From assembly GCA_945643635.1 (NCBI GenBank), contig CALZFC010000006.1, positions 5,776,001 to 5,840,000 of the forward strand: a DNA stretch of 64,000 nucleotides, read 5' to 3'. The position numbers were made by a program, and so were the translations under genes. The notes beneath the pieces are model-generated. The model ran no database searches. It was not told the DNA's origin and saw only the letters and a program-made list of their open reading frames with translations. How positions within the stretch are numbered: position 1 is the first letter of the stretch; the number at the start of each line of letters is the position of its first letter. Origin of the DNA: Allodiplogaster sudhausi (Eukaryota > Nematoda > Chromadorea > Rhabditida > Diplogasteridae). This document shows positions 1 to 53,699 of the stretch, piece by piece.

Positions 1-249
1 CGCAAAGAGCATATTAACTTATTAAAAAAAAGTCGGGAGGGATAACTCGAACAAAACAGTCAAAAATATGCTGAAAGAATACGTTTTTTTATAGTTTTAG
101 AGATCAATAAAAGAAAAATAGTTTCATACATATATACATATGCCTATACAGAAAAAAATATGAAATATTTGAGATTACGAATATTATTTACAAGAAAATG
201 TAATAAGGAACATGTTGTTTCATTAAAATCTGATAAAAAAATTTATGAC

Positions 250-620: not shown

Positions 621-1188
621 GTTATATATGCCTATGCATAAATATTGTGTGTTCATAAAAAAATAAAAATCGCCCGATAAATATGAGTAGATAAATATGA
701 ATAAGTGCAGATAGAAGAATCGGAGGCTAAAGAAGAGCAAAATTCAATCTTGAATTCGCGTCTTTTTGCCTGAACTAAGGACGAAAGAATATATGATTTA
801 GAGAGAAGCGAAAATGAAAAAAAGCAGAATGGAAGCATTAATATCGGGAAATATCTGACTCATGAAACGCATGAAAGTGAACACGCAACAAAAGCAAACC
901 ATGCAAAAGTGTGACTCTTCTTTTCAGGATATCAAATTTTATGAGAAGTTGAATCACTTTTAATAAGAGTAATAGAAATAGATATTATTTAGATTTTGTA
1001 TGTGCAACATGACAATTATTGTCTGTAATAAGAACAATTCGCCACGCAAGAAATTAAGCAAAAGCATCGCGGAGCCTGCCGACCGCAAAAGTGCAAGATC
1101 GCGTGAAGTCTGCGGTTAAGAGTGGGCTTATCGCAGTAGCGCCGTTTAATTACTCTCATTTTCTCTTTCTTATGTTTTCATCTCCTTC

Positions 1189-1260
1189 CCTCTCTCTCTC
1201 TCTCTTTCTCTCTTTCTCTCGTTCTCCCTCCCTCTCTCTCTCTCTCCCTCTATCTCCCTC
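1189..1260 (+). repeat. (CT)n microsatellite
   Basis: A CT-rich tract with a few interruptions. It is one of the few long pyrimidine tracts on the plus strand of this window, where nearly all arrays are GA. Confidence 0.8.
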
Positions 1261-2587: not shown

Positions 2588-2634
2588 AGGAGGGCGATCA
2601 CCGAAGCTACTCTCTTAGACATTGACTAAGAGAG
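2588..2634. repeat. Terminal fragment of a TTAA-type element followed by a small hairpin
   Basis: AGGAGGGCGATCACCGAA is the same terminal sequence as the complete TTAA-flanked element at 44,576-45,071, but no TTAA precedes it and no partner end is visible, so it is a relic. Just after it lies a perfect 9-bp hairpin: CTCTCTTAG (2,610-2,618), a 7-base loop, and CTAAGAGAG (2,626-2,634). Confidence 0.45.
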
Positions 2635-4446
2635 CTTCTTCTTTTTCTTCTTCTTCTTTTTCTTCTTTTTTCTTTTTTTTGTTGTTGCGAAACTCGATGG
2701 TACCGATCAAGTAACATAGTTTTTTTTAAAATCAAGTTTTTATAAATCTCAATATTTTAACACGTTGTAATATTAACTGTTTTTTTTAAATTTACATACT
2801 ACTATTAATTTTTAAACAAATTCCACTTTCTGCGATATGAAAAGTTATTCTATAAAAAAACAACTTTGAGATAAATCATTTTACTCTCGATCGATTGAAT
2901 AAGGTCATTTCCCTTCATCTTTATCTTGTTGCTTCCGGCAGCTTATACATATCTATGTTTCGAGTCCACTGCGGCTTTTCTTGGCAGCAACAGAGGGGTT
3001 AAGACGGCTTCTTACGCTAGACAGCGTCACAGTCTCCTTTGATTCGGGCCGGAAAGAGAGAGTGGTTATGCCTGATAAGCACACTGGAGCCGCACTCTTC
3101 TTCTTCTTCTTCTCCTTCCAAGGGAAGCGGAAGAGAGATGAGGAGGGAGTGATAAGAAAATAGAGAAAGAGAGAGAGAGGGGGAAGAGAGAGGGAGCGAG
3201 AGAGAGACAAGGAGCAATAGAGAGGCTAGACAGAGAAAGAGAGGAACGAGAAAAAAACACAAGAGAGTGTCTAATAAAGGAGCTTGAAAAGAGCGAAAGA
3301 AAGATGCCGGCATTGCAAAAGCCTTGGAACGACTCTGCTAGCGCAAAAGCACAATCTTTTTTCAAACTGTCCTGCCTCCTTTGTTCCTTTGTTCTTTCTT
3401 CTTCTTCATCTCTCTCTCTCTCCTTCTTTCTCTGTCTGTTTTACTCTCACCCTCTCTCTCTCATTCCTGTCTGTCTCTTTCTCTCGGTCTCTTGTTATCA
3501 CGCGAACTAACAATAAGAGGGAGATTCCGGGGAGTCGTATACAAATGTGCTGCTTCAGTTCACATGCATTTGAAGTTGAGTTGATTTTAGTTGTCCTATC
3601 CTTTCATAATTAGCCATTTTATTATAAATTAATTAAACCTTTACTAAATATATTGATCGAAGAAATATAACATTAAAAGTACAAGTTTAGCAGTGCAATT
3701 CCCTAAAACGCATATCACAAGTAACTTTCATTCCTTAAAACTCGAAGGTTTTCGTCTCACTGACGCCTCTATTTATGCATATACATATCATACATAGAAC
3801 AATACTTATTTCGAATAAGCGCGCGAATTCAAACGTGAATAATTAGTGCCAACACGTCGCGTCAAAAGTGGTGACCCATACCATACATGCACACACATAT
3901 ACATACACACTATTTAAGAAAGGGAGAGAGAGAGAGGGAGTGCGAGAGAGAACGGCAAAGGCGGAGAGAGAGAGAGAGAGAGCGAAGAAGAAAGAGCGAA
4001 TGAAAGAAAGAGAGAAACCCGTTAGGGCATGCCGTGCCCTCGCTTTCTTCATAGTACATTTCTTCGACCAGCGCTAAACACTACTATCAGAAATGTTACG
4101 CTAGTGACAATCGTTCGATGCCGCATTCCCTCCGCATTCCGAACAATTCCTCGGGCCACTGTCGCTCCGACATTCGGCGTCCTTGAATTAGAAACATTTC
4201 GTTTAATATAATTTTAATTTAAAAAAAAACCTTGTCTCACTGTGCTTTGCGGGGGATCAGAAGGGATCTTTTCTTCGCACAATTGCTTTGATAAAAAATG
4301 TCGTATATCTAGTTTACGGTTCGGTTGCATTTCAGCAAGCAACGATTAGTTTCTAGATGGCTAATAATTCACAATAAAGACTGATGCTTATAATATCATT
4401 TAAAAATAATAATGGCGGGAAATTTAAATTTAAACAAGGAGATCAC

Positions 4447-5646
4447 CTTCTTCTTCTTGTCCTGCTCCCTGAAGAGACGCGCGCACGCGACAATGATCTG
4501 GAGGAACCAGCAGTTGATGAAGACGGTGGCCGCCGTCGGCACGGTCAGGACGGCGGCGACGATTGGGATTACTAGGAAAAGAACCAATTTTTGGCACACT
4601 AAAAATAGCGTTGAATAAATTTCCGTTGATTTCTAGAAAAAGAGCAAATTCTTGGCACACTAATAAAAAGTAAAATAACTTTGGACTGTGAAAAACTCCG
4701 TTTTATTACATACATATGTACATATGCGTATGTACAAGACGTTTGGGAACGCTAGGAAATGAACCAATTCTTGGCACACTAAATAAAGCGTTGAATATAT
4801 TTCTGTTGAGGAAAAATCCGTTAACTTCCTCCACATTTGAAGATATCTACAAGACGATTGGGATCACTGATTTTGAGGAATAGCGTCATTTTGTTAGAGC
4901 AAATTCTTGTACTCATAACAGCAAAAAACCGTCGACTAAATTTCCATTGTTGCAAAAAAAACCGTTTTCTTCTGCATTACTTAATTAACTAGAACGTTCG
5001 ATTTGCATATATTGAGCTAAGCTTTCCGAACACGGATTTTTGAATCATTGGGTTCAAGGAAAACAGCATGTTTTTTTTTGTTGCTTCGTTAGGATTAAAT
5101 GACGAAAATTACTTTTTTTAAATTTAATTTTCCCGCGCACCCGACTTTTGCTGGACGGAGAGCGACTGCGCAAAGGATTGGACGTTCTCGCGCAGCTCCA
5201 TCTCGAGGTACTCGCCAGCGTACGAGTGCGGATCCCAGACGGCTGACGCGAAGAACATCGTGAGGAGGACGAGGAAGTTTATCGTCACGATCTGACAGAG
5301 AACGAGAGTGAACGAGAGAGAGAATTGACAGCTTGAGAAAAAAAGAGGAAAAGATTAAGATAGGGAGAGAAAGAGAGCGATGAAACAAATGAGCACGAAT
5401 GAACGGGAGAAGATATATTGTCTAATGTTAAAAGAATAGAAATTAAAGTTTGTTTTTTTTGCGGAAGGAAACTACAAGTTCAAGATTACATCGCAGAATT
5501 GCAGGTTAAGATGTATCACTGAAAGTTTGAAGGTGTGTAAGAGGCAGAGTCCGTGAGTGCGAGGGTGAGATTGAAAGAAAGCGGGTAAAGGTAGAGAGAG
5601 GCAGAGAGAGAGAGGGAGAGAGCGAGAGCGAGAGAGCGAGAGAGCT

Positions 5647-5684
<38 letters not shown>

Positions 5685-6501
5685 GCTTACAGAGAGCACG
5701 ACGAATGGCTGCAGCAGCGCCGCTCGCTCTCTGCGTATGCCGTAGAAGAGGCAAGCGACAGCGACCGAGTCCACGACCAGAAAGAGCAGCTCCCAATTCC
5801 AGTCTGTGTCCGAGTAGCCGGTCGCCTTAGGAGATCAAAAATTCAAATTCAAATTTCCCGCCGAAATATTTTTGTCTTCAAATTGTCTTGTCTAATCATT
5901 TAGACATTCATATGTAGATATGAAGCATACATGCATACTTCCATGAATTTTTTAAAGAAAAATTTCGTTACATTATAAGTGATTGATTATTGATTGGTTT
6001 TGGCAACTTTAAAAAATATTTGCATTCCTCTGATATTTTAATGTTTTTTTTCTCTTTAAAATAAATATGAGTAACTAACCTTGAGAATAAGATTAATGAC
6101 TATGAGCAAAGTCGAAAAGGCGGTGACAGCATCGGCGGATTGCTAGAGCAGAAAAGGTATATATTACTTGCATTTCTTGAGCAGTCTTCGATGAGAACGA
6201 TCAGCTTGACAGTATATCCCAACAAGCAAAATATGTCGAAAGTAGTGTGAAATACACGGCATGGATAATTTTTACAGAATCTAGCAGCATGTTCTAAGCA
6301 AGTAGGACTGGGCCGTAAAATGTCTTTTCCAGTCCGATATTTGGGCCGGACCGTAAAATGTCTATTCGAGGCCGATTTTTTGTGATGTCCGGCCGGGAAA
6401 TAGACTTGCCATTTCCCCAGCAGATTCATCTAAGGTCAAAACCAAAGCCGAGCCTTAATATGGGGCGCTCGGCAGCAACATCGAAGACGAGCATCTTCCA
6501 T
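4447..6501 (-). CDS. Tetraspan membrane protein, LAPTM/DUF7027-like, up to six exons (copy 1; one in-frame TGA)
   Basis: A four-helix membrane protein of the kind found in endomembranes of nematodes and insects; its exact role is unknown. Minus-strand exons: a possible first exon from ATG 6,501 with a CCC motif; 6,293-6,168; 6,142-6,080 (helix 2); 5,825-5,691 (loop with DTDWNWE, then helix 3 and RRERAALLQPF); 5,291-5,141 (rest of helix 3 and an acidic loop with WDPHSYAGEYLEME); 4,571-4,447 (helix 4, ending FREQDKKK). Exons two to six join in consistent phases (0,0,0,1) at GT-AG sites. The long GA tract (CT on this strand) lies in an intron. The exon at 6,293-6,168 carries a TGA where the 13-kb copy has AGA, so this copy may be dead or that exon wrongly bounded. 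The link from the first exon is the weakest. More 3' exons may exist. The family call rests on helix spacing and the helix-3 motif from memory. Confidence 0.55.
5589..5683 (+). repeat. (GA)n microsatellite inside an intron of the tetraspan gene
   Basis: An almost pure GA tract filling much of the 400-bp intron between the exons at 5,825-5,691 and 5,291-5,141. On the transcribed (minus) strand it is CT, so it could act as an extended polypyrimidine tract. Confidence 0.8.
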
Positions 6502-6867
6502 AGCACGACAGAATGCGTTACGGTTGCGTGGCGGCTCTTGCTGGCATCAAAATACGGCCCTGATTGTGAGCATGAATAATGAAGAGGAAGTGCTGAGGAT
6601 AAGGAGAGGAGGTGGTGTGTGAACGGAATATTGTCTAAGCCTTGCACTGTAAGAGAACAGGAAAAAGGAGCTTACCTAGTTAATTCCAGCTCATTCCTGT
6701 AAATGGTGTAGTAGGCAGTAAAAATGGAATTCGGTCCAAAAAGTATCGATCGATCGGCTATTGTATTCGAGTGGAAGAAGGAGGAGGACGAAGCAGTGGG
6801 GGACAAGTCGTGGGGAGTTAGCCTCGGGGGAATCTTCGGCCTTGGTGCACCAGAGGCTTGCTCCCAC

Positions 6868-6873
6868 TCTTGA

Positions 6874-6948
<75 letters not shown>

Positions 6949-7395
6949 TCAGAGTGAGTGAAAGGGAGAGAATGCGAGAGTGGGAGAGAGAGAGAGAGTC
7001 AGAGTGAGTGAAAGGGAGAGAATGCGAGAGTGGGAGAGATAGATAGAGATGGAGAGAGAAAGAGAGAGTAGCAACCACTCTCTCTCCCTTCCCATCTCCT
7101 CTCTACCATCTAATCCCATGCTCAAACGCAGAGAGCCTCTGGGACTCCCCTGCGGGAGCTTCTTCGCTCACGCCTACACAACAAGAAGTACAGAAGCTAT
7201 TCTCTCCTTCTTACACTCTCTCTCTCTCTCTTTCTTCATTCATCTCTCCCTCCCTCTCTCTTTTCCCTCGTACTTCTACTACCTCTCTTTCATCACCTCT
7301 CTTCCATCACTCTCTCAGTCTCTCTCTCTCTTTCTCTCTCTCTCTATCTCTCTTTCTCTCTCTCTCTATCTCTCAATCTCCCCACTCTCTTTCAA
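6868..7395. repeat. (GA)n ... (CT)n inverted microsatellite pair around a conserved 130-bp core
   Basis: A GA tract (about 6,868-7,068) and a CT tract (about 7,205-7,380) face each other across a unique core and could pair over 100 bases or more. The core contains GCTCCC-CTGC-GGGAGC-like self-complementarity and an open plus-strand frame (LKRREPLGLPCGSFF...) kept in the paralogous copy at 14,427-14,780, where both tracts have different lengths. No gene can be assigned. Confidence 0.6.
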
Positions 7396-7739
7396 AGACT
7401 ACTCTGCCAGAGTTCAAAAAAGATCCTGTGCGGAACTCTCGCTGGCAGTGAGGCATGAATGATTGTCCTCAAGAGACGAGATTCTTGATCTCCCTTCCGA
7501 GCAATGCCTCTTTGAGATTGGAAGTAAAGCCATTACGGTGCAAATTGCATCGCTTCTTTCTAATCAGAATCTTTATCAGCAGCAAATGCAAGAATAACAA
7601 CAAAACTTTAGGCATATTATTTGTCTCAAGAACATACAGGTCATTGCAAATTACTGTAATATTATTGCATCGAGATGCTAGAGAGAGAGAGAGAGTGCGA
7701 TGAAGGGAGCCATTCATGAAACAGGAATTTTTTTTAATT

Positions 7740-8982
7740 ATTTATAAATCGAACACAGTTGACCGAAAAGCTCTAGAAATCCATAGCATTCGCTTTTATG
7801 ACGCACGCCTCGTAAGAAAACCACCGGAACGTTGAAAATGTAAATGATCTATTTTCTGTCTTTTTTAAACATTTTTTTGCCAAAAATTGTTCGTTTTTCA
7901 TGCCCAGAAAATAATCAATAATTGTTCGCTCAGTTATTTACAATCAATGATCAAATATTACAGATCAGAGGAGTCACTTGGCACCTGGTGGCGAGAATGA
8001 CTTCTCGTCCAAAGAGCGAGAGAGACAGAGTGAGAGAGAAAGATAGGGAGAGACAGAACGAAATATAGAGAGAAATAGAGACGAAAAGAGAGACGGAGAC
8101 ATAGAGAGTAAAAAAAGAGAGAGAAAGAGAGGAGAGAGACAGAGAGGCAGAGAGAAAAAGAGAGGGAAAGAGATGGAGAGAGAGAGAGCGAGGGAGTCGG
8201 AATTGATTTTTCTTACTTTCTAAACCTTAATTAGTTTATTTATATGATTTCTTCTTAGATTATAATTAAACAAAAAGAATTATAAGTTTGTCTAACGTCT
8301 GCAAACCATGGTTGAAATCGGAAATAGCGAAAAATTGAGAGAGACAGAAATATTGTCAATGAGTGAGGGAGGAAGAAAGATTGAGAGAGAGAGAGACAGA
8401 AGGTGTGAGGGAATGCAGCTTTGTATGTAGTTTGTTTTCTCTATTGGAGTTGGACGCACATTGCTGCCAAAAGAAAGCAAATGACGTTTGCGACATATTA
8501 AAACTACCGGCATGTGTAAAATGGAAGTGATCTGTTTACTTCCTTATTTTTTTAAATGCTTTTTTTTGTTGCTTAACTTGTTCTTTTTTCTAACCCAGAA
8601 AATGATCATTAATTTATGTATCAGTCGATGGTCAAAGATCAGAGATCCGAGAGGTCTCGTGGACAGCGCGTCCTCTGCGGTGCTTCTGGCTGGTCGACTT
8701 GCATGGCGAGAAAGGCCGTTGCCGAAGCCCGAGTCGGTAGCACACGTTACGTCGGTTGCATTCATTACGAGAGAGAGAGAGAGAGAAACATAGTAAGAGA
8801 GAGAGGGAGAGAGAGATAGACAGAGATACAGAGAGAGACAGAGAGAGAGAGAGAGTGCGAGGGAGGTAGGCAGAAGTAGGTGATGCATCGGGTGCTTTCA
8901 TGATTAAATGAGAGAGAGAGATAAAGAAAGAGCGTATGATAAGAAAGCGATAGAGAGACAGACAGAGACAGAGAGAAGCAGC

Positions 8983-9037
<55 letters not shown>

Positions 9038-16040: not shown

Positions 16041-17040
16041 TAGAGGGGCTTTTTACGCAGGGCTTTTTTTTTACCTTTTTTCATTTCAAATATGACTACG
16101 TGAGCCAGCAAGAAACCGTAAGAAAACCGGAGCAAGAGACGCTTGCAACGTATGAAAACAACTGGAACGTGTAAAATGTAAGTAATCTGATTATTTTCGG
16201 TTTTTTAATCTCGTTCATTTTCTGTCCCAGAAAATAATCTACAAGTTAACGATTAGTTTTTTTTATCAAAGATCATAGGGGCTACGTGTACTGCAAGTCT
16301 TTTTCTTGGGATAGAATTTATCATGTTCCGGCCGTTCGTTTTCTATCTCATCATCAAAGATCAGCAGTGATCCATCCATCGGTGGCTGATCACAGCAATA
16401 ACTTTTATGACGCTTGTAACGCATGAAAACTACCGGAACTTCCAAAATGGAAGTGAGCAATTTTCTGTTTTTTTTATTTATTATTTTTTTGCTTAAACTC
16501 ACTCGTTTTCTATCACAAAAAAAATTATCAAAAATTAACGAATCGATCAGTTATTTCAGAGAATGATCAAAGATTAGAGATTAGAGGAGTGACCCCCTTG
16601 CAGTGCTTCGGGTCGACCTGCATGGCGAGAATGGCCGCGGCTTCGACTTCTCGTCTGTGGAAGACGTAAAACATTGCCTGAAGAAGATGATGCATCTGAT
16701 ACATTCATGAGAAATGAGAGAGAGATAAAGAGAGAGAGTTTGAGAAAGAGAGTGATAGAGAAAAAGACAGAGACAGAGAGAAACAGCGCGAGAGAGAGAG
16801 ACAGCCATTCATAAACAGGACCTATTTTTTATCCTTTTTTCCGAGAAGTACTTGCTCAGCAGCATCGCTGGCAAACAATAGCAATTGCTTTTATGCCGTG
16901 CAACGTATGAAATACCACTGAAACATTGAAGATTTAAATGATCTCAACTGAAAATTTTTTTTTGCTTAAACTCATCCGAAAATTAATCAGCAATTTATTA
17001 ATCAGTTATATTCAGTCAGTGATCAAAGATTAGAGCAATC
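15660..17040 (+). repeat. Array repeat units
   Basis: Three or four units of the same family, with ACTACCGG blocks near 15,705, 16,160 (degenerate), 16,430 and 16,910. The unit at 16,140 has AAAATGTAAGTAATC, a perfect donor-like sequence, at the edge of its T-rich stretch. No gene seen. Confidence 0.7.
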
Positions 17041-21053: not shown

Positions 21054-23897
21054 TCATGATGTAACATTCAAGCAATAGGTACGGAAGGAAGAGAGGGAAT
21101 TTGTTGAGACATGGTGATCAAGTAGTGAGTTCCATAACCGGACTACACGATAAGATAGGCATGAGCGACGATAGCGGAGTGATCGAAGAGATGGAAATGA
21201 AAGCCTAAGAGAGTGACCACGGAGATTGGAAGAGTATCCAGTTGGGAATTGGAAGAAATGAGTGGGTTCAATTGGGGTAAGATTTCGCATAATTTTGAAA
21301 GTTGTAACTAAATCGGTAACAAGTCTGCGTTGCTCGAGCGAGGGTAATCCGAGGGTCTGTAAGCGTTGATCATATGACATAGAACGGCCAGATCTTTTAA
21401 AGATGGATCGGGTGAAACTTCTTTGGACTCTCTCAACCATATTGACATATTGAACAGCAGAAGGGTTCCAAACTTCGGATAGTGAATCAAGTATGGGCAA
21501 TACATAAATGTTATATAGGCGGGTCAAAATAGAGGGGTTGCGAGATCGGAAAGAGCGAAGAATATATGCGCATCGTGCGGACGCTTTTCTAACAATGGTC
21601 AAAATGTGCTCCCTAAATGATAGTTCGCTATCATATGTAATACCAAGGTCCTTAAAAGAAGACACAGTTGGGAGAGGTATGCCGCGCAAAGAAAACACCG
21701 GTGGGATTGGGTGGTTACCGATTGTCATGATAACAGTCTTATCCAAGGAGATAATGAGACCCCACTTATTGGCCCATAAATCGATGGCATTAAGTGCCGA
21801 TTGAAGGAGAGGCTGATCATTATACGTATATACCTTAATATCATCCGCGTAAATAGTGAAATAACAACCTGAGGGTATGCATTCAACAATGTCATTAATG
21901 TAGATAAGAAAGAGAAGAGGTCCTAAACAAGTTCCCTGATTTACACCACTGTTAATAGAATAGGGAAGAGAAGTAGAATCATTGATGATAACCGACTGGT
22001 TTCTATTAGCTAGAAATGAGTCAAAGAATCTCAGAAGGCTACCAGATATACCAATTTTGGAAAGTTTATAGAGAAGATGGGGTCGAGGAATTGAATCGAA
22101 GGCCTTGGTGAAATCAATAAAAGCAGTAGTGACATATTGGGACGAGTCTAAAGCACGATGCCATTCATTAAGAGTGGATAAAAGGGCAGTGGATACGGAG
22201 TGGCGAGGGCGAAAGCCGTATTGGAAAGGGGTGAGAATGGAATGCTCTTCAAGGTAGAGGAAAATTTGTCGGGAAATAATGCGTTCCATTACCTTAGATA
22301 GAGAACAAGTGAGAGATATAGGCCTATAATTTACACAATCTTCGCGGGATCCTTTCCGCTTGTACACGGGACGGATAAGAGCACGGGACCATATCTTGGG
22401 AATTTGGCCATACATCATTATTCGATTAAATATTATAGTAATGGGAGTAGTAATAGAGACAGCGGCCTTCTTAAGAAAAATATAAGGAATTCTATCAGGA
22501 GATGTAGAGTTTCGACTAGGGAGCTTAGACAATGCACGGGAGATGGTTTCTGAGGTAAACTCGATGTAATCTAATCGGCCAGCAGTGTAAGGGGTAGAGT
22601 CAGACGGGGGAGGAGGAGGGGAAACAGAAGTGAAATCAAAACAATCTTCAAAATAATCAGCAAATGCTTGAGCCTTGGAGGGTGCATCTGTACATATAGC
22701 ATAAGAGGTCTTAATGGGACCAATACTCGTATTATCTTTAATACAACCATTAGCATAGCGGTAAAATAATCGCATATTGACTCGAGATGATATACGATTC
22801 TCTAATTGCCTCCTATGGTGATAAAGGGCCTTCTTTAGTTTACGAGAAGCATGCAAAAAGGGTGAGAGACCAATAGAGGAACGACATTTGTATAAGGAGT
22901 CACAAGTGCGAGCTAATTTTTGGACTTGGAAAGGGAACTGTGGATGGGTACGGGAAATGGAGCGAATGGGAACGAAATTATCTATCACAAAGTGGATTTT
23001 CTCCAAGAAAACAGAATAGAGAGAGTCGACATCACTTGCGGAGCTTAGTAGATTGGTCCAATTAATCGCTAACAAAAAAGAGTTGATTAGACTCCAGTTA
23101 GCACGTTTAAAATCTCTTATTTGGAAATGTGACTGCGGTGGAAGGGAGGGAAGGGAGACGTGAAAAGCTACAGGAGAGTGGTCCAGCGAAGGCAGCGGGG
23201 GAAGGACGGAGCATGCAGATACCAATGAGCTGTCAGTAGAAAAAACTAGGTCGAGAAGCGATTGATTGCGAGTGGGTTCAGAGACGTGTTGAGATAGAGA
23301 GAGAGTGTGGCAAAGAGAAAGAAGAGATAAACAAGAGGGCGTGAGAGTGGTTGGCATAGACAACGAGAGAGGGTCATACGCGTTCCAATTGATTTCGGGG
23401 CAATTAAAATCACCGGCAATGATATGACTATGACTATAATGTTCTAGAATGGTGTCATGAATTGTATCTAAACAAGCAATGAAATCAGCTGCAGGGCAGG
23501 ATGGACTTCTATATACACAGTGGAAGACTATTTTAGAAGAGTCAAATGTAACCGCAACAGAAACCTGCTGACAGAACTTGCCAAAAGAAAGGGAATGTAC
23601 TAAATATGAGGGAAGGCAAGAGTCACTAAGTATGCAGACACCACCACCAATGCTATCACTAGAGCGATCTGATCTAAAAGCATTATAGTCGGAATTGAAA
23701 GAGAGCATTGCATCAGATACAGAATCAGCAGTGGCCCAAGTCTCAGTGAGCAGAAAGACATTAGTTTTATGGCGAAAACGAAAATGGTCTAAGATAGGGA
23801 GCTTTCTACCAATGGATCTGATGTTGATAAGAGCACAAGGTAAAGAGGAGGTGGGTGAGCAGTTTGAGACAAGAGAGGGGGCTAAATGGGGGGATAC
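21054..23897 (-). CDS. CR1-like ORF2: endonuclease and reverse transcriptase
   Basis: About 947 residues from the codon after the ORF1 stop; the first ATG is at 23,708, inside the endonuclease. The N-terminal APE-type endonuclease shows NIRSI, LLTETW, AGDFNCPE and LDHSPVAF. The reverse transcriptase follows with NYRPISLT, QYGFRPRHS, FIDFTKAFD, NQGTCLGPLLFLIYINDI and the catalytic YADD, then a C-terminal region with the SYRVVRLWNSL motif common in CR1/Jockey elements. It would copy its RNA at a nicked genomic target. Starting at 23,708 would remove the first endonuclease motifs, so the protein must begin upstream, where there is no ATG. It lies in the same frame as the tail of ORF1, with a single TAG between (23,900-23,898). 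No internal stop is seen. Confidence 0.9.
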   Translation of the reverse strand, partial: VSPHLAPSLVSNCSPTSSLPCALINIRSIGRKLPILDHFRFRHKTNVFLLTETWATADSVSDAMLSFNSDYNAFRSDRSSDSIGGGVCILSDSCLPSYLVHSLSFGKFCQQVSVAVTFDSSKIVFHCVYRSPSCPAADFIACLDTIHDTILEHYSHSHIIAGDFNCPEINWNAYDPLSLSMPTTLTPSCLSLLSLCHTLSLSQHVSEPTRNQSLLDLVFSTDSSLVSACSVLPPLPSLDHSPVAFHVSLPSLPPQSHFQIRDFKRANWSLINSFLLAINWTNLLSSASDVDSLYSVFLEKIHFVIDNFVPIRSISRTHPQFPFQVQKLARTCDSLYKCRSSIGLSPFLHASRKLKKALYHHRRQLENRISSRVNMRLFYRYANGCIKDNTSIGPIKTSYAICTDAPSKAQAFADYFEDCFDFTSVSPPPPPSDSTPYTAGRLDYIEFTSETISRALSKLPSRNSTSPDRIPYIFLKKAAVSITTPITIIFNRIMMYGQIPKIWSRALIRPVYKRKGSREDCVNYRPISLTCSLSKVMERIISRQIFLYLEEHSILTPFQYGFRPRHSVSTALLSTLNEWHRALDSSQYVTTAFIDFTKAFDSIPRPHLLYKLSKIGISGSLLRFFDSFLANRNQSVIINDSTSLPYSINSGVNQGTCLGPLLFLIYINDIVECIPSGCYFTIYADDIKVYTYNDQPLLQSALNAIDLWANKWGLIISLDKTVIMTIGNHPIPPVFSLRGIPLPTVSSFKDLGITYDSELSFREHILTIVRKASARCAYILRSFRSRNPSILTRLYNIYVLPILDSLSEVWNPSAVQYVNMVERVQRSFTRSIFKRSGRSMSYDQRLQTLGLPSLEQRRLVTDLVTTFKIMRNLTPIEPTHFFQFPTGYSSNLRGHSLRLSFPSLRSLRYRRSCLSYRVVRLWNSLLDHHVSTNSLSSFRTYCLNVTS

Positions 23898-34285: not shown

Positions 34286-34710
34286 CAGAGGTGGGAACGG
34301 GCCCAAAATTTTCCCGTCGGGCCCTAAGTCTCGGCCCGGCCCGGCCGGAAATTTCCGGGCCCTGTTATTTTGGGCCCGGCCCGTGGGCCCGTTTGAGCCC
34401 GATTTTCAAAAAATTCTGAAAAAAAAGTCCAACGAGTTACAATTTGTTTAGAAATTCATAATTTTTCATGCTCGTGCAACGAACATTCATTTTATTGTAT
34501 AGAAGTAAGACTTTTATAGGGAAAAAATGATCAAATATAGAAAGTTTTGCACTTATCAATGCCACCAGTCGTCCGGACTGAACGACATTGTGTGCTTATC
34601 GGGCCCAATCGGGCCTGCGGGCCGGCCCAACTTTTCTTGGGCCCGGCCCGGCCCGGGCCCTTGGGAAACTGGGCCGGCCCGGCCCGCGGGCCGGCCCATT
34701 CCCACCTCTG
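34286..34710. mobile_element. hAT-type non-autonomous element with perfect 8-bp target duplication
   Basis: A 425-bp element with ends CAGAGGTGGGAACGGGCC and GGCCCATTCCCACCTCTG, flanked by GTGGCGTT (34,278-34,285 and 34,711-34,718). The subterminal parts are dense in GGGCCCGGCCC; the middle is AT-rich and non-coding. It is absent at the paralogous place near 16,388 (ATCGGTGGCTGATCACAGC), so it inserted after the duplication or was lost there. Confidence 0.85.
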
Positions 34711-35026
34711 GTGGCGTTACCATAGCAACAACTTTTATGACGCTTCTAACGCATGAAAACTACCGGAACTTTCAAAATGGAAGTGAACAATTTTCTGTTT
34801 TTTTTTAATTTAAAATTTGTTTTGCTTAAACTCACTCGTTTTTCTATCACAGAAAATAATCAAAAATTAACGAATCGATCAGTTATTTCATTGAATGATC
34901 AAAGATTAGAGATTAGAGGAGTGACCCCCTTGCAGTGCTGCGGGTCGACCTGCATATCGAGAATGGCGAGAATGGCCGCGGCTTCGACTTCTCGTCTGTG
35001 GAAGACGTAAAACATTGCCTGAAGTA

Positions 35027-36030
35027 CAGTCCCGCCCAGGATCTTGGTACCAAGGAGGGATCGGATGCATCGGAGGGATCCAAATGCATCTTCGTTAATA
35101 ACTAATGTTCAAGAGAAAATAAAAATATTGTAAATGGTACATTAGGTTGCTTATAGAGAGCGGATGCTACTGTTAAAAAATCGATAATTTCTTATCGTTT
35201 GATAAGAAGTTATCAGTTTTTGGTTATAAAAAATTTCATTTTTAAATATTTTTCAAAAAAATTTTCCTGTACCATTATTTTGTCTCTACGCACATCCCCA
35301 AATAATAAAATATGAGATTTTATCATTGTTAGCTGAAATCGCTAAAGGAGACCTTATCACACTTGTTCATGTTATGTGAAGATTCGCCTTACGATGGCGA
35401 ATCTAAATATGAAAACTGTTTTCAAAACAAAGCATCCGTTTAAAAGAAATTTGTGATTGAGTGTATTAAAGCTCCAAGAGATGGGATTTGTAGTTCGTAT
35501 TACGTGCGTTCAGTGAATTCATGAAATACAGCATGCTAAAATACGGTCCACTGTTTTATTACACGCGGATCCTTTGGATTGCACAGAAGTTGTTTTCTTT
35601 TTTTCCGCAATCCAATTTTCCTGTTTATTTGCGTATTTTATTTCTCTATTTGCTTTTCTCTTCTAGTTTCGACCGATGACGACTCGCGCTTGCTGCCGCT
35701 GCTTTGGATGCCGCGCCGACTACATCGAAGTCGCTTAACCGCCTGCAGAACTGCGATTAGATCAGTCTTCTTTCATTTGTTTTTTGTCACGCTTATTTCG
35801 GTGTGTGGCTTGTGGGGTGTTATTTCTAGAGCACCGCGCGTGACGATGGGAAGTTGACGCTGCCTTTACTCCTGCTACTTTCGACTGCGCTCTAAGGCTC
35901 ATGCGAGGATCATCCTTCACATATGGTTTTCGTTCGTGCGACTCTTTCGTTTTATAAACTTGCAGCATTCATTACAACCTTTCTTATAAATAGTTTTGTT
36001 GAAACTTTATTGCTTTCTTATGATGAACAG
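35027..36030 (+). repeat. Left terminal inverted repeat of the two-gene transposon
   Basis: It pairs with 39,628-40,639. Near the tip there are two GGAGGGATC repeats and a GATGCATC palindrome, possible transposase sites. A 92-codon open frame (35,579-35,857) recurs in the other arm (39,815-40,087, minus) with a 6-base difference. It may be an artefact of arm symmetry. Confidence 0.85.
36006..36011 (-). terminator. Poly(A) signal of the transposase gene
   Basis: AATAAA on the minus strand, about 190 bp past the stop codon and inside the inner end of the left inverted repeat. It is the counterpart of the signal at 39,652-39,657. Confidence 0.5.
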
Positions 36031-36196
36031 TAACGCAAAAGATAGTTCCACAATACCGTAAAAAAGAGTAGATGACGAATGATGACTAATTGTCAAATAG
36101 TTCAAATTATTTAAGACGATCCTATTGTTCATCTAAAACAGGAATAATAAAAAAAGGGAGCATAGCATATACATTTCTGGTTTTCTACTTAAATTC

Positions 36197-37284
36197 TCAC
36201 TTTCCTTCCATGAAGTTGCCTCCCTGTGCCTGGACACATTTCTGCATGGCCGTCTGGACGTGCCGTATGTGCTTCTGGCAGAATTCAGTCGTCAGAGTTG
36301 TCCTCCAGAACTCAAGGATGCCATCGCGGAGTTGGTCCAATGTGTTGGTCTTTCGCTCCTCCCTGACCATGAGTATTATTTTTGTTTCTTTTTCATTTAA
36401 TAAAGAATTAGACATGACAGCAACAAGGAATTTCATCTCTGACTTGAGAAAGCGCTTCAGATCGGCCCAAACGAGTTCCACGGGATTTAGATCGGGGGAT
36501 TCGGTCGGCCATGGAAACACGTCTACCCCAAGCTCAGCCAGTCTTGCCTTTGTGTAGCGACTGGTGTGCTTGGGGTCGTTGTCCATCTGTAGCCGGCAGC
36601 AACCGCCGTAGTGCTTGTCACGGAAGGGGATGAAGACTTGTTCGACAATCCGGCAAAAGAAACGACTATCCATTCGCATCTGAATTTGTGATTTCTTTAA
36701 TTATCTTTGTAAAACCTGTTCTCTTTTTTAACTACCGTAAACAAGGACTATAATTAGATCGTACTCTGCCATCCCATATGTATATCTTAGACGGGCCGCG
36801 CCAAGAGATGCCCGCATAGACATGAAGACGGAGTGGGTACTTCGGGCGAGGGGCAAGCCGGTTGATATCTGCTGAGCTACTCACAAATTTATATCTGCCG
36901 TTATTATCTTGGCAGACTGTGCATTCGTCGCTGAAGAGTACATCAAAGAAAGTCTCTCCATTTGCAAGATTCTGTCTGCACCATTGGAGGCGCTTTGGCT
37001 TGTTTGGAGCCCTTATGTACTGGCAGTACTTGGCTGTCCTGCAACGGAACCCAGCCAGAAGCCGTAAGCGCTTAACGCTGCTCAGCGAGAAGAGCTGTCA
37101 AAGGTCACGTCTCAGCTTCTCCCGCGCTTTCTTTGCAGACAAAGAAGCGTTTTCCATGTAGTACGCAGTCATCTTCTGAGCAATTCATTCTTCGAGTGAG
37201 AGACACAGAGAGAGCGCGAAGGATAGAGAGAGAGAGAGAGATAGAGAGAGAGAGAAACTGAAGGAGAGTTAGCTGAAGGGAGAA

Positions 37285-37321
<37 letters not shown>

Positions 37322-37601
37322 GAGAGACCACGAAACGAACCTTGAGTGCACGATTCCTGAATAGAGCGAATTTGCTCCGTCGTGAGCAGGGGGCACGTCG
37401 CCTGCCCTTGAATATCTTAACAAAGCGGCGGACAGTCTTATATGCGACGTTGTCGCCCTCCAGAATGAGCTGCTTCCGAATCTGACTGGCATTCATGCCC
37501 TCCGCACCATACAGGTAGACGACGCGTTGGAAGAGAGGGTGCATTGTCGCCTGTATAATGGAAGGATATGGAGGAGAAGCTTTCGTAGGGGATGCGCCCA
37601 T
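36197..37601 (-). CDS. Tc1-like DD34E transposase, three exons, one in-frame TGA
   Basis: Exon 1 (37,601-37,341) is the helix-turn-helix DNA-binding part (MNASQIRKQLILEGDNVAYK, then a basic GRRRA). Exon 2 (37,175-36,765) carries the first catalytic Asp (LFSDEC) and HVYAGISWRGPSKIYIWDG. Exon 3 (36,679-36,197) carries the second Asp (MDNDPKHTS) and the Glu (SPDLNPVELVW), exactly 34 residues apart. Joins are phase 0 at AAG|GTTCGT...CTCAG and AGA|GTACGA...TTCAG. Total about 384 codons, slightly long for Tc1. A TGA at 37,100-37,098 interrupts exon 2 near residue 113; it may be a real lesion or a base error. A ~35-codon insert after ADLKRFL (up to VREERKT) is unlike relatives and could be an unspliced short intron ending GGTCAG. 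Intron 1 is filled with CT on this strand. Confidence 0.8.
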
Positions 37602-37796
37602 TTTCCCGCGTAAATCGTCCGCTCACCAACTGAGTCACGTGCTCGAAGCAGTCACGTGCTCGAAGCTTGAGAGAGAGAGAGAGATGCACACGGGGAGAGA
37701 GGTAGAGAAGGAAGAAGTGGAATGGTTTCATTCTTTCGCTGTTATTCATCACCCCTAATTTGCTCACCGAATTTAACCCTTTACTACCTACAGTGA
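37602..37796. promoter_or_regulatory. Shared divergent promoter region of the two-gene transposon
   Basis: 195 bp between the start codons of the transposase (minus) and BEN-like (plus) genes. It contains a duplicated CACGTGCTCGAAGC (around 37,635 and 37,652) and a short GA tract (37,670-37,683). Position and repeat suggest joint control; no core promoter motif can be named. Confidence 0.45.
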
Positions 37797-37948
37797 ATGA
37801 GTCGTTTCGCTTTGTTTGTATTCTCTGATAAGGAGAACGGCCTTCCGCAGTTCGCCGTCATCCCGGTCAGCAGCTTTAAGCGCACTGTCAAGGCAGGAGG
37901 CGAAAATTTGGTGAGACCATTCAGTTACGATTGATATTGATAGAAGCG

Positions 37949-38010
<62 letters not shown>

Positions 38011-39542
38011 GGCGAGATAGAAAGAAAGAGAGAGAGAGAGAGGGAGAGAGGAAATGGCCTTCCCATATTTCGAAGTTTTCCGAGCGCTAATAGGTCGTTT
38101 ACGAGGACGGCCAAGAGTACACAGGAAAGGTACACGTTGTCGGAAGCAAGGCATATTGTGAGAAAGAGAGCAAGAAGATCGGAAAGCCGCTGCAGAAGTC
38201 ACTGACTCCCTCTTTCTCTACAATTGCTACTAAGGCCGCAGGCAATGCACAGAAGAAGAAGCCTCGCCGTCCTAATTTGTAACTTTATCTTGCTTTCATT
38301 TATTGCATATTATTCTCCATTATCACTACTTCTGTTGTTGCTACAGCATGACACCCGTCGTGGGTCGGTCGGTGCTCTCCGAAAGTGAGGAGGATGAGGA
38401 CGATGAGCATGCTCTGCTGAGCCAGTCTCCTCCTCGGATCCACCGTGCACCATCTGCGCATAGGCCCCCTGCAATTCTTGCATCAGCTGATAGCCGCCCC
38501 GCCACGATTGCTGACATCCGCGAGATGTTCGCTGCGCACGAAGAGAAAACTAAGCAGTTGCTCACAGAGCACAAGCGAGAGGTTACACTCGAATAAAAGA
38601 ATAATAAGAATGTAGAATAAGAACTGTTGCGAATAGTAAAAAAGAATAAAAAGTCAGAAACATCTTAATAGTGTTGGCATGAAGGTCGTGGCGGCCGTGA
38701 GGGACACGATGAGATTCCTCGTGGTAGAGGTTGGTTCAACCAGAAGGACTGCACAGGCATTGTTGGAGAGGGTGGAGAAGAGCCCTGCTTCCATGGAAAA
38801 GGCCATCGAAAACTTGCCACAGATCTCCACGAAGAGTTAGAAAAAATTTTCAATCGTTTAATATCGAAAAAGGAAATAAATAGAAAAATAATTAGATTTA
38901 AAAAAAATTAATAAAATAATTAGATGTCACTATCCAGACACTTTTGTTCAATCCTTCAGGGAGAAACTTCAACTTTATCTCAATCGAGGAAGTTGCAATG
39001 CTTCGGGAGAACTACCCGAAGCCCACCTCGTTCTGTCGACAGTTAGAGTCCCAGCTCTATGCCGGAGACGACGATCGTCATGAGCCAATACAAAAGCGAA
39101 TGGATATTCGCAAGCAACAATTCTTGAAGGAGGTGGGCTGAAGTAGTAAAGAATCATTTATTATCAGAATGATTTCGAGCAAAAAATCTAGTTTTAGATG
39201 CTAGAGGCCTATTTTCCGACGTCTTCGAAGGATCAGTCGGAAGCTCAATGGGGACTAGCGAAGAAAGTTATCAACAACTACGCTGAAAAACAAAAGAAGA
39301 AGGAGACGGGAGAGGAAGCAACCAGAAGCCCTCTCACTGCTGCTTCGCAGGAGCGTAGAAACTCTGTTCCATTCCGTCGACAGCGCATCCACTCTGAACG
39401 CGCTGAGGAGGATTTCATGGCTGAAAATCAGGGCAGGCACTTGGATGAAGAAGGAGATGAGAATGAACCCCCAACGCACAACTACTATGCAAATGACACT
39501 GATAATAACAGCTCTTTTAATATCTTCGATGATATCGAATAG
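37797..39542 (+). CDS. BEN-domain-like protein carried by the Tc1-like transposon, six exons
   Basis: Exons 37,797-37,910, 38,094-38,278, 38,347-38,581, 38,658-38,835, 38,960-39,132 and 39,198-39,542 join in phases 0, 2, 0, 1, 0, giving about 409 residues without a stop. The N-terminal part (FALFVFSDKENGLPQFAVIP, then YEDGQEYTGKVHVVGSKAYC) resembles the small domain that opens many invertebrate BEN proteins. An acidic SESEEDEDDE segment and a coiled-coil-like region (KTKQLLTEHKRE; TAQALLERVEKS) follow. Next comes a helical block (RQLESQLYAGDD, QQFLKEMLEAYFP, AKKVINNYAEK) that fits the BEN DNA-binding fold, then a Lys/Glu-rich and acidic tail ending FDDIE. BEN proteins bind DNA and chromatin. 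A role in transposition or in silencing the host response is a guess. The 3-4 donor (GAG|GTTACA) is weak. A poly(A) signal lies 110 bp past the stop. Confidence 0.7.
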
Positions 39543-39627
39543 TTAGCTTGAATCCTCTTGTTTTTTCTAATGCCTCCTTTTTTTCCTTTCTCACCCAACC
39601 ATTAACCAATCGTTTAGTGTTTTAAAG

Positions 39628-40639
39628 TGTTGATGTTCATCTTATGAAAGAAATAAAGTTTCACTTGTTGCAACAAAACTATTTATAAGAAAGGTTGTAA
39701 TGAATGCTGCAAGTTTATAAAACGAAAGAGTCGCACGAACGAAAACCATATGTGTAGGATGATCCTCGCATGAGCCTTCGAGCGCAGTCGAAAGTAGCAG
39801 GAGTAAAGGCAGCGTCAACTTCCCATCGTCACGCGCGGTGCTCTAGAAATAACACCCCACAAGCCACACACCGAAATAAGCGTGACAAAAAACAAATGAA
39901 AGAAGACTGATCTAATCGCAGTTCTGCAGGCGGTTAAGCGACTGCGATGTAGTCGGCGCGGCATCCAAAGCAGCGGCAGCGAGTCGTCATCGGTCGAAAC
40001 TAGAAGAGAAAAGCAAATAGAGAAATAAAATACGCAAATAAACAGGAAAATTGGATTGCGGAAAAAAAGAAAACAACTTCTGTGCAATCCAAAGGATCCG
40101 CGTGTAATAAAACAGTGGACCGTATTTTAGCATGCTGTATTTCATGAATTCACTGAACGCACGTAACACGAACTACAAATCCCATCTCTTGCAGCTTTAA
40201 TACACTCAATCACAAATTTCTTTTAAACGGATGCTTTGTTTTGACAACAGTTTTCATATTTAGATTCGCCATCGTAAGGCGAATCTTCACATAACATGAA
40301 CAAGGGTGATAAGGTCTCCTTTAGCGATTTCAGCTAACAATGATAAAATCTCATATTTTATTATTTGGGGATGTGCGTAGAGACAAAATAATGGTACAGG
40401 AAAAATTTCTTTGAAAAATATTAAAAATGAAATTTTTTATAACCAAAAACTGATAACTTCTTATCAAATGATAAGAAATTATCGATTTTTTAACAGTAGG
40501 ATCCGCTCTCTATAAGCAACCTAATGTACCATTTAAAATATTTTTATTTTCTCTTGAACATTAGTTATTAACGAAGATGCATTTGGATCCCTCCGATGCA
40601 TCCGATCCCTCGTTGGTACCAAGATCCTGGGCGGGACTG
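39628..40639 (-). repeat. Right terminal inverted repeat of the two-gene transposon
   Basis: Inverted partner of 35,027-36,030. A few substitutions and small indels separate the arms, for example an extra CACTTGTTG-type segment near 39,662-39,670. Confidence 0.85.
39652..39657 (+). terminator. Poly(A) signal of the BEN-like gene
   Basis: AATAAA, 110 bp past the TAG stop, within the inner end of the right inverted repeat; mirrors the transposase signal in the other arm. Confidence 0.6.
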
Positions 40640-41016
40640 TATGTGATGCATCGGTTGCATTCATGATGAAATGAGAGAGAGATAAAGAAAAAGAGTGGGA
40701 GAGAGAACGCGATAGAGAGAGAAACAGAGACAGAGAGAAAAGCGAGAGAGAGAGAGAGAGAGAGAGACAGCCATTCATAAACAGGGCTTAATTTTTAACC
40801 TTTTTTTTCGAGAAGTTGTACCCCAATTATCGCTGGCAAATCAAAGCAATTGCTTTTAAAACGTGCAACGTGCGAAATACCACCGGAACGTTGAAGATTT
40901 AAATGATCTCAACTGAAAATTTTTTTGCTTAAACTCATCCGAAAATTAATCAGCAATTTATTAATCAGTTATATTCAGTAAGTGATCAAAGATTAGAGCA
41001 GTCTCGTGGGCAACGC

Positions 41017-52499: not shown

Positions 52500-53699
52500 T
52501 AACCGGTTTTTTCTTAAAAAAAAAACAATAATTTATCGGCCAGTTATTTTCAATCGATAATCAAAGATCCTAGATCAGAAGAGTTACCTGGACATACCAA
52601 TTAAGGTATTCAATGTACTCACTACGGTACAATTTGCATTGCGCCTTTTCAATCAGAATTTACGTAGCACATGTATAAAAGCGAAAATAGAGAGAGAGAT
52701 AGCCTTTATGATGCATGCAACGCATGAGTACTACCGGAACGCGCAAAATAGAAGTGATATCTCTGATATCAAAAATATCTGTTTTTTTCTAATAATTTTT
52801 TTTTGGACTAAAACCTGTTAGCTTCTCGATTCCAGAACATAATCAATAATTGATCGATCAGTTATTTTCAATCATTGATAAAAGATCAGAGATCAGAGGA
52901 GACACCTGGACAGCGCATCCCTTGCAGGGCTTCTGTTCAACTTGCATGCCGAGAATGGCCACGTCCGACTTCTCGTCCGGGGAAAACATCCAGCCCGATA
53001 AGTAGTCAAGGCATCGGTTGCATTAACGATGGGATAAGACAGAGAGAAAAAGAGAAGAGGGACGGAGAGAGAGAGACGGAAGGAAATCTTCCCTGCACGT
53101 CCATTCGATCGATCTTGAGCTTCGAAATCGGTTTTATGGTTTATTGATTTTACTTAATTTGTTTCAAAGATATTTACATTTTAAAAATATAACACTCTCT
53201 AAACATTAATTATTTTAGTTGTATTATTTCTTCTTTTATAATTATACAAATAGAATTCTTGAGTGCGCCAACGTCTTAATTATTTTAGTTGTATTATTTC
53301 TTCTTAGATTATAATTATACAAATAGAATTCTTGAGTGCGCCAATGAATGCGAAAATAGAGAGTAAAAGAGATAGAGAGAGAGAGGATGGAAAGTCATTC
53401 ATAGATAAAGTTGTTTTTTTTTGTAAATTTTTCCTTTCCTTTCAACATGTGGGTTCACAGAATCGGTTGAAACCCGTAGCAATTGCCTTTGCTTGAATAC
53501 CACCGGAACGGTGAAAATTTAAATTATATATTTTCTGAGCCACCCATAGGCAGCGTTTTTTGTGCCTTCTTTTTCTTTCAGAGTTGTAATTTGCGCTATA
53601 ACGTTTAGAGAGAAAGAGAGAGAGATAGAGAGAACGAGAGAGAGAGAGAGAGAGAGAGATGGACAGAGAGATATATAGAGAGAAAGAGAGAGAGAGAGG

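What the first reader, a model, noticed from the sequence alone, without database searches (positions are those of the whole stretch)
35027..40639. A Tc1-like transposon that carries a BEN-domain-like second gene between ~1-kb inverted repeats
Seen: TA-flanked CAGTCCCGCC ends, ~1-kb near-identical arms, a three-exon DD34E transposase on one strand and a six-exon, ~409-codon open gene on the other, in divergent arrangement with poly(A) signals in the arms. Known: Tc1/mariner elements are usually short, with one gene and short ends. Inferred: the second protein has a BEN-like fold with an N-terminal chromatin-type domain and could act as an accessory factor, repressor or host-chromatin adaptor. 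Near-identical arms, consistent splice phases and an open second gene argue for a recent, organised element rather than chance nesting.
Basis: partly seen in the sequence, partly recalled or inferred. Interest (0 to 1): 0.88.

Follow-up and report, generated by a model that had tools for sequence, protein, structure and literature searches.

The report
Two-gene Tc1 transposons with BEN-like partner
A family of cut-and-paste jumping genes in this genome carries, beside its transposase, a second conserved gene predicted to make a BEN-like DNA-binding helper protein, and the two genes have stayed paired head to head through many diverged lineages, which is unusual for this group of elements.

Summary
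35027-40639 is a TA-flanked Tc1/mariner (DD34E) element with 1-kb arms (21 mismatches, 15 gap columns in 1012) and two divergent genes; a host repeat at 16381-16834 shows the empty site. Corrections: gene 2 encodes 400 residues in six exons; the transposase has four exons and, in this copy, an in-frame stop.

It is not a chance nesting. Sister copies at about 78% DNA identity (L039, L040) keep both genes and gene 2's splice sites, and gene 2 evolved under purifying selection (dN/dS 0.17). A far relative (L053: 2-kb arms, transposase exons 33-50%, gene 2 about 30-40% identical) keeps the ends, the orientation and the phases of all five shared introns. Genome-wide, 43 of 57 related transposase loci have a divergent gene-2-like locus within 8 kb, against 0 of 10 more distant Tc1-like loci and 0.17 expected.

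"BEN-like" is plausible but unproven: Pfam BEN at E 0.002 in one subfamily, below its cut-off, and no hit in the other members scanned.

Most likely mechanism (inferred): gene 2 is an arm-binding accessory factor of the transposase, as the Myb-like protein is in Harbinger. New variant of a known kind.

The parts
35027..40639 (.). whole element, 5613 bp, subfamily A
   Evidence: empty site
35025..35026 (.). TA target-site duplication, left
40640..40641 (.). TA target-site duplication, right
35027..36029 (+). left arm (inverted repeat, 1003 bp)
39634..40639 (-). right arm (inverted repeat, 1006 bp)
35043..35054 (.). 12-bp palindrome CTTGGTACCAAG at bases 17-28 of the end, also in subfamilies B and C; one mismatch in the right arm
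35055..35101 (.). subterminal zone with 9-bp period (degenerate here, clear in subfamily B, L054 and D2)
35183..35214 (.). internal near-palindrome in the arm
35380..35404 (.). internal near-palindrome AGATTCGCC..GGCGAATCT in the arm
37341..37601 (-). transposase exon 1 (from ATG)
   Evidence: boundary
36765..37175 (-). transposase exon 2 (first catalytic D)
37098..37100 (-). in-frame TGA in this copy; sense codon in the seven other copies that hold this exon in the alignment
36444..36679 (-). transposase exon 3 (second D and E)
36197..36362 (-). transposase exon 4 with stop
37602..37796 (.). 195-bp gap between the two start codons; presumed shared promoter (inferred)
37797..37910 (+). gene 2 exon 1 (N-terminal module, first half)
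38094..38278 (+). gene 2 exon 2 (N-terminal module, second half, and basic linker)
38347..38581 (+). gene 2 exon 3 (acidic and proline-rich linker)
38685..38835 (+). gene 2 exon 4 (predicted coiled coil; only a sub-threshold TRIM_CC match in the subfamily B protein)
38960..39132 (+). gene 2 exon 5 (first half of the BEN-like domain)
39198..39542 (+). gene 2 exon 6 (second half of the BEN-like domain, tail ending FNIFDDIE, stop)
39652..39657 (+). poly(A) signal of gene 2, inside the right arm
36006..36011 (-). poly(A) signal of the transposase gene, inside the left arm
16381..16834 (+). uninterrupted copy of the host repeat = empty site

Best explanation
This is one copy of a Tc1/mariner transposon clade that carries two divergent genes between long inverted repeats, a DD34E transposase and a conserved six-exon gene whose product is predicted to be a BEN-like DNA-binding protein that likely binds the arms and assists or regulates the transposase. 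Shown: the anatomy, the pairing across diverged families, the conserved intron phases, purifying selection on both genes between subfamilies, and shared ends. Inferred: the C-terminal domain is BEN-like; the protein is nuclear and multimerises through a coiled coil; it reads the subterminal 9-bp repeats and palindromes of the 1- to 2-kb arms and loads or positions the transposase there (or tunes its dose), as the Myb-like protein does in Harbinger. The window's copy can no longer make full-length transposase, so it could only move with enzyme from elsewhere.
For: Other copies with both genes between the same ends: L034 (96.5% over the whole element), L040 and L039 (about 77.5%), L035 (one end truncated). 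Gene 2's splice sites are kept and the frame is open in win, L034, L039, L040; exon length changes between A and B are multiples of 3. dN/dS A versus B: gene 2 0.17, transposase 0.065-0.114. Distant family D2 (L052, L053): ends TACAGTCCCGCT, ~1.99-kb arms 98.9% identical, transposase 33% (exon 1) and 45-50% (exons 2-4) identical, gene-2 homologue 30% over its matched stretch and 40% in the BEN-like region, divergent; its gene is open in two copies and its introns have phases 0,2,0,1,0(2) against 0,2,0,1,0 in the window. Pairing: 43 of 57 related transposase loci have a divergent gene-2-like locus within 8 kb, none has only a neighbour in another orientation, 0 of 10 more distant Tc1-like loci, 0.17 expected. 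Distances of the two proteins correlate, r 0.97, 24 of 5040 permutations as high. BEN: Pfam E 0.0023 in subfamily B; against an HMM of four solved BEN domains the nine members' scores are equalled by 0 to 57 of 500 shuffles, and the window's longer stretch by 3 of 2000. 9-bp subterminal repeats in A, B, C, L054, D2.
Against: BEN similarity stays below Pfam's cut-off and is absent in scans of 8 of 9 members. hhalign gave 2-3% probability, pairwise comparison with BEND5 (recalled sequence) was at chance, and a PDB search with the family profile listed no BEN chain. No expression, binding or transposition data. 14 of 57 related transposase loci showed no partner; of the two of these that I fetched, L057 did hold a diverged fragment and L054 is a deletion derivative. 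25 of 67 gene-2-like loci lack a detected divergent transposase and were mostly not examined. Small elements with only the arms exist, so gene 2 in cis is not needed for mobility. Codon usage of gene 2 favours the right frame only slightly over one reverse frame (0.171 against 0.154 bits).
Confidence: 0.6

Rival explanations
1. Gene 2 is a self-limiting regulator (repressor or chromatin silencer of the element's own divergent promoter), not a helper of transposition.
For: Several BEN proteins act in repression or mark chromatin boundaries (PMC11472053, passages); the two start codons are 195 bp apart, so a shared promoter is likely; gene 2 is open in 4 of 5 copies with both genes, the transposase in 0 of 5, one-sided Fisher 0.024, small and uncorrected.
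Against: A repressor lowers its own copy number and would not be expected to persist through so many families unless it also helps; no binding data. Within subfamilies gene 2 drifts near-neutrally.
Confidence: 0.22
2. Gene 2 is a host-directed factor (for instance anti-silencing or a chromatin adaptor that picks integration sites or counters host defence), not acting on the arms.
For: Conserved N-terminal module and a similar acidic C-terminal end in several families; faster evolution of gene 2 than of the transposase between A and B.
Against: No family match for the N-terminal module; no target known.
Confidence: 0.14
3. Gene 2 is a captured host gene or a chance nesting in one copy.
For: None beyond the 25 of 67 gene-2-like loci without a detected divergent transposase.
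Against: 43 of 57 pairing in divergent orientation; conserved intron phases at 30-40% protein identity; congruent distances.
Confidence: 0.02

Closest known systems
PIF/Harbinger transposons (transposase plus Myb-like protein)
   Same: Two genes per element; the second is a fast-evolving protein with a DNA-binding domain; congruent histories of the two proteins suggest one origin of the pair (PMC9179366, passages read).
   Different: Different transposase superfamily: here DDE_3/DD34E, TA duplication; second protein not Myb-like but BEN-like at best; in Harbinger the helper's role has been shown (as that paper reports), here it is inferred.
Ciliate Tc1/mariner elements with extra genes (Tec, TBE, Sardine, Thon, Anchois)
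   Same: Tc1/mariner superfamily with additional ORFs; Sardine and Thon have long, palindromic arms of 425 and ~700 bp (PMC3464196, passages; TBE: PMC4724952, passages).
   Different: Their extra genes are a tyrosine recombinase, a zinc-finger/kinase ORF or ORFs of unknown function; no such domain was found in the frames scanned here.
Ordinary Tc1-like elements (DD34E)
   Same: TA target, DD34E transposase with DDE_3 domain; top protein hit is from Mytilus coruscus, 40% identity over 59% of the query.
   Different: Usually one gene and 1.3-2.4 kb (recalled); here 5.6-7.6 kb with a second gene.
BEN-domain chromatin factors (BEND5, Insensitive, BANP, NACC1)
   Same: Predicted coiled coil followed by a C-terminal helical region with helices in the order of the BEN domain; subfamily B reaches Pfam BEN at E 0.0023.
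   Different: Below the Pfam cut-off; shorter loop between the second helix and the next long one (my reading of the alignment); encoded by a transposon.

Membership tests
Tc1/mariner superfamily (DD34E) | TA target-site duplication | tested here: met
   also the flanks of L034, L036, L031, L038, L040
Tc1/mariner superfamily (DD34E) | DDE_3 transposase with 34 residues between second D and E | tested here: met
   Pfam DDE_3 E 1.8e-9; spacing 34
Tc1/mariner superfamily (DD34E) | terminal inverted repeats | tested here: met
BEN domain family (Pfam PF10523) | score above the curated cut-off | tested here: not met
   best natural sequence 18.5 bits against 23.2; window protein no hit
BEN domain family (Pfam PF10523) | five-helix BEN fold with recognition helix 5 | tested here: inconclusive
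BEN domain family (Pfam PF10523) | sequence-specific DNA binding | not testable with these tools
PIF/Harbinger | Harbinger-type transposase and 3-bp target duplication (recalled) | tested here: not met
   DDE_3 and TA
PIF/Harbinger | Myb-like second protein | tested here: not met
   no Myb family in the Pfam scans
Ciliate Tec/Sardine type | tyrosine recombinase or the ciliate accessory ORFs | tested here: inconclusive
   no such family among the frames and proteins of the element scanned with Pfam; not every frame was scanned, and the ciliate ORFs themselves were not compared

The most novel reading that the evidence does not exclude
A whole clade of animal-type Tc1/mariner transposons has become a two-protein system: a fast-evolving BEN-like partner, inherited as a head-to-head pair with the transposase since the clade's origin, reads 9-bp subterminal repeats in arms stretched to 1-2 kb and is required for, or sets the dose of, transposition. 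Tc1/mariner would then have converged on the Harbinger design, and transposons would be a home, possibly a source, of BEN-type chromatin proteins.
Probability: 0.39. Interest if true: 0.87.

Novelty: new variant of a known kind. Interest (0 to 1): 0.76.

Why it matters
Tc1/mariner transposases are the textbook case of an enzyme that moves its DNA alone, and the vectors built from them rely on that. A clade that keeps a second gene, under selection and in fixed orientation through deep divergence, says that some members depend on or are governed by a partner. It gives a natural set of families in which arm sequence, partner and transposase have changed together, so that who reads what in the arms can be tested directly. 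If the BEN reading holds, it also ties a class of animal chromatin and boundary factors to mobile DNA.

Tried and rejected
Chance nesting or one-off capture: rejected. A frameshift that I suspected in transposase exon 1: rejected, since L034, L035 and L039 keep the window's frame at that place. Codon-usage test trained on the window's LINE: no signal; trained on the transposase exons: gene 2 0.171 bits per codon in frame (other forward frames about 0; best reverse frame 0.154) against 0.014 for the 95th percentile and 0.418 for the maximum of 436 random windows, best of six frames. Pairwise alignment to BEND5 and solved BEN domains: BEND5 203 and 232 of 500 shuffles as high, BEND6 31, NAC1 80, Insv 131, Bsg25A 297. 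hhalign of the family to BEN: 2% probability, yet 0 of 200 column shuffles as high with four PDB sequences and 2 of 200 with BEND5 added. Scoring four BEN sequences with the family HMM: BEND6 5, Bsg25A 9, NAC1 130, Insv 221 of 500 shuffles as high. Shared k-mers in the arms as binding sites: little beyond GTACCA and TAAAATA. BEN family search in the host genome: no match, and its controls were silent too, so it shows nothing. Homologues in 5.8 billion proteins (word-based, limited sensitivity): none at E 10 for A or D2 residues 1-320; viral contigs: none. Literature: no Tc1/mariner element with a BEN gene in the listings (5 papers; 1; 4; 12 of 69 listed), nor a two-gene animal Tc1 (2; 12 of 43 listed); the library holds open-licence papers only, and I saw listings, not those papers, except one passage of PMC5704228. 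The paper cited there that described the BEN domain is not held.

Choices to know: the split into '57 related' and '10 distant' transposase loci was made after seeing the identities (50% or more; all but four hits at 27-34%). The gene-2 side of the count uses 69 anchor hits that I picked by hand, one or a few per locus, from the 206 rows; one row (C51:1104413) was left out, and lies in the same cluster as a row that was kept. Two of the 43 transposase loci (both on C66) share one gene-2 locus. L034 and L036 have identical 12-base flanks on both sides, so I treat them as one insertion. L042 keeps all six exons but is off frame in exon 1; it was left out of the five-copy comparison (with it, gene 2 is intact in 4 of 6). 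Transposase exons were there judged on aligned cores.
Full report
What is there. The element runs from 35027 to 40639 (5613 bp) and is flanked by TA on both sides. Its arms, 35027-36029 and 39634-40639, align over 1012 columns with 21 mismatches and 15 gap columns. The flanks, joined, match an uninterrupted copy of the same host repeat at 16381-16834 at 87% across the junction (478 columns, 26 gap positions), so the boundaries fit and the insertion is real; that copy reads AA where the site reads TA. A BLAST of the element finds no second copy in the window.

Gene 1 is a Tc1-like transposase on the minus strand: Pfam DDE_3 at E 1.8e-9 for the frame with the second D and E, 34 residues between D255 and E290, best relatives by protein search a Mytilus coruscus protein (40% over 59% of the query) and three unnamed ones at 32-36%. 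Alignment to these relatives and to other copies gives four exons, not three. This copy has an in-frame TGA at 37098-37100 where six other copies have glycine and L039 arginine.

Gene 2 is on the plus strand, six exons, 37797-39542, 400 residues, all introns GT..AG. Exons have 47-59% G+C; four of the five introns have 21-31%, and the first, which holds a GA tract, 46%. Its G+C by codon position (0.555, 0.403, 0.58) resembles that of the transposase (0.537, 0.435, 0.613); a codon-usage score trained on the transposase is above the 95th percentile of random windows, but one reverse frame scores nearly as high. Both genes have an AATAAA in the inner end of the neighbouring arm.

Other copies. The host genome is held as an unnamed assembly of 352 Mb in 382 contigs. 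The first 300 bases of the arm match at least 40 places (40 scored of 1318 candidates), and eight pairs of these lie 0.7-1.2 kb apart in inverted order, i.e. small elements made of the arms (my count on the table). Gene 2 gives 89 exon matches. Sixteen stretches around such matches were fetched. L034 carries the whole element at 96.5%; L040 and L039 carry both genes between the same ends at about 77.5% (subfamily B); L035 lacks part of one end; L031, L036 and L038 have internal deletions; L042 is a third, decayed subfamily; the other fetched loci are partial. In win, L034, L039 and L040 the six-exon model is open with all splice sites; L035 has one stop; L042 is off frame in exon 1. Exon length changes between A and B are multiples of three; introns differ by 12, 3, 10, 44 and 0 bases, and are 68-81% identical against 80-85% for the exons.

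Selection. Between A and B, gene 2 has dN 0.114, dS 0.66, ratio 0.17; the transposase 0.065 to 0.114 depending on the copies. Between copies of one subfamily the ratio is higher (gene 2: win-L035 0.48; win-L034 2.8 and L040-L039 1.7 on very few changes; transposase: win-L034 0.61, win-L031 0.42), as expected for copies that drift after insertion. So both proteins were kept working in the moving lineage. Among five copies with both genes, gene 2 is open in four and the transposase in none (one-sided Fisher 0.024); this is a small sample, L039 and L040 are near-identical, and I put little weight on it.

Distant relatives. Weak matches of gene 2 (32-42%) led to loci L047-L051. L047, L048 and L049 show a Tc1-like transposase in the opposite, divergent direction within the 3 kb fetched; in L050 and L051 no transposase was seen in the 3 kb, but one search has one 3.3 and 3.5 kb away. 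The D2 family was fetched more fully: in L053 it spans 62-7695 with arms of about 1.99 kb at 98.9% identity, ends TACAGTCCCGCT, transposase segments 33% (exon 1) and 45-50% (the others) identical to the window's, gene-2 homologue 30% over residues 207-321 and 40% in the BEN-like region. The D2 gene has seven exons, is open in two copies, and its first five introns have the phases 0,2,0,1,0, the same as in the window, with a first exon of 114 bases in both. L055 and L056, fetched because of their transposase (64% and 63% over part of exon 3), also hold a divergent gene-2 homologue.

Pairing across the genome. Transposase searches with two queries (126 rows) and gene-2 searches with two queries (206 rows, of which I used 69 as anchors) were combined. 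Of 57 clustered transposase loci of this clade, 43 have a divergent gene-2-like locus within 8 kb; no locus has only a neighbour in another orientation; 14 have none. Of 10 more distant Tc1-like loci none has one. Uniform scatter would give 0.17. One of the 14, L057, does hold a diverged fragment of gene 2 in the expected place and direction; another, L054, is a 2.8-kb deletion derivative; the other 12 were not read. Of 67 clustered gene-2-like loci, 42 have a divergent transposase and 25 do not; most of the 25 were not read. Over seven families, distances in a transposase segment and in the BEN-like region correlate at 0.97, matched by 24 of 5040 label permutations. One origin of the pair with joint descent is the simplest account.

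Is it BEN? The C-terminal region has a strict family pattern, with 15 invariant columns in nine members at 34-88% identity to the window's sequence. Pfam scans: nothing for the window's protein; the subfamily B region (L040) reaches BEN at E 0.0023 over profile positions 7-74 of 76 and within the whole B protein E 0.03; a composite of L044 exon 5 and L040 exon 6 gives 0.002, which is not independent; 1 of 9 members. The cut-off (23.2 bits) is not reached. Against an HMM of four solved BEN domains the nine members' scores (A, B, C, D1, D2, D3, D4, L055, L056) are equalled by 0, 1, 5, 10, 48, 13, 39, 32 and 57 of 500 shuffles: consistently high, individually weak. In the reverse test two of four BEN sequences stand out (BEND6 5, Bsg25A 9 of 500) and two do not. 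The family profile lists no BEN chain in the PDB. AlphaFold of exons 5 and 6 apart, without relatives, gives helices at 8-17, 23-33, 43-56 and 11-36, in the order of BEN helices 1, 2, 4, 5 as I read them, at low confidence. My estimate is about 0.6 for a true, diverged BEN domain. The N-terminal 70 residues form a second conserved module (G15, V21, Y41, S56, C60 invariant in seven members) with no Pfam match.

The arms. Subfamilies A, B and C share the 12-bp palindrome CTTGGTACCAAG at bases 17-28, followed by direct repeats with a 9-bp period at bases 29-75: three units GGACGCATC-like in B, GGAGGGGTC in L054, degenerate in A and C, and ATATTAATA units in D2; period-9 matches reach 0.61 (B), 0.58 (L054), 0.45 (A), 0.42 (C) and 0.95 (D2), with 0, 0, 3, 25 and 0 of 2000 shuffles as high. 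The period was chosen after looking at the sequences. The unit changes between families while the period stays, which is what one would expect of sites read by a changing DNA-binding protein; D2's units are AT-rich and also raise periods 6 and 12.

Mechanism, inferred. A divergent promoter would make both proteins together. Gene 2 has the parts of a nuclear DNA-binding factor: basic stretch, predicted coiled coil, BEN-like domain, acidic tail. BEN domains read DNA mainly through helix 5, and BANP, which oligomerises through a coiled coil and a second domain, sits as two molecules on one palindromic site (PMC11472053, passages). The simplest use in a transposon is to bind the long arms and bring in, place or limit the transposase, as the Myb-like protein of Harbinger interacts with its transposase, enters the nucleus with it and binds the repeats (PMC9179366, passages). 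In that superfamily too the second protein evolves faster and its tree follows that of the transposase. A regulator and a host-directed factor are the main rivals.

Known kinds. Two-gene DNA transposons are known (Harbinger), and Tc1/mariner elements with extra genes are known from ciliates, with a tyrosine recombinase or other ORFs (PMC3464196 and PMC4724952, passages). I saw no report of a Tc1/mariner element with a BEN-like or other conserved partner in animals in the listings, which show part of the hits and open-licence papers only. I therefore rate it a new variant of a known kind.

Noticed in passing
window 34700-35026 plus 40642-40800, and 16381-16834, 52705-53072, 8873-9009 and others: The element sits inside a dispersed host repeat with many copies in the window.
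   Followed up: partly
window 21057-23897 (-): A 947-codon open frame with endonuclease and reverse transcriptase domains (Pfam): a non-LTR retrotransposon, open over that stretch.
   Followed up: no
window, throughout: Purine excess on the plus strand with very many (GA)n tracts (GC skew positive in 31 of 32 and AT skew in 30 of 32 steps of 2 kb).
   Followed up: no
L034 and L036 (same contig, 534 kb apart): The two copies have identical 12-base flanks on both sides but differ by an internal deletion: perhaps a segmental duplication or an unmerged haplotype in the assembly.
   Followed up: no
flanks of L034, L031, L040: Insertion sites look palindromic around the TA (ATA|TATGT), a possible target preference; few sites seen.
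   Followed up: no
host contig C43:872500-872871 (-) with gene-2-like C43:874306-874494 (+): A clade transposase match lies in an 1810-codon open frame, unusually long, with a divergent gene-2-like match about 1.7 kb away.
   Followed up: no
L052 right end, 6644-8001: The right arm of this D2 copy is repeated in tandem.
   Followed up: no
25 gene-2-like loci without a detected divergent transposase, e.g. C131:574354, C322:3414133, C299:601785: Possible remnants or host-adopted genes of the family.
   Followed up: no
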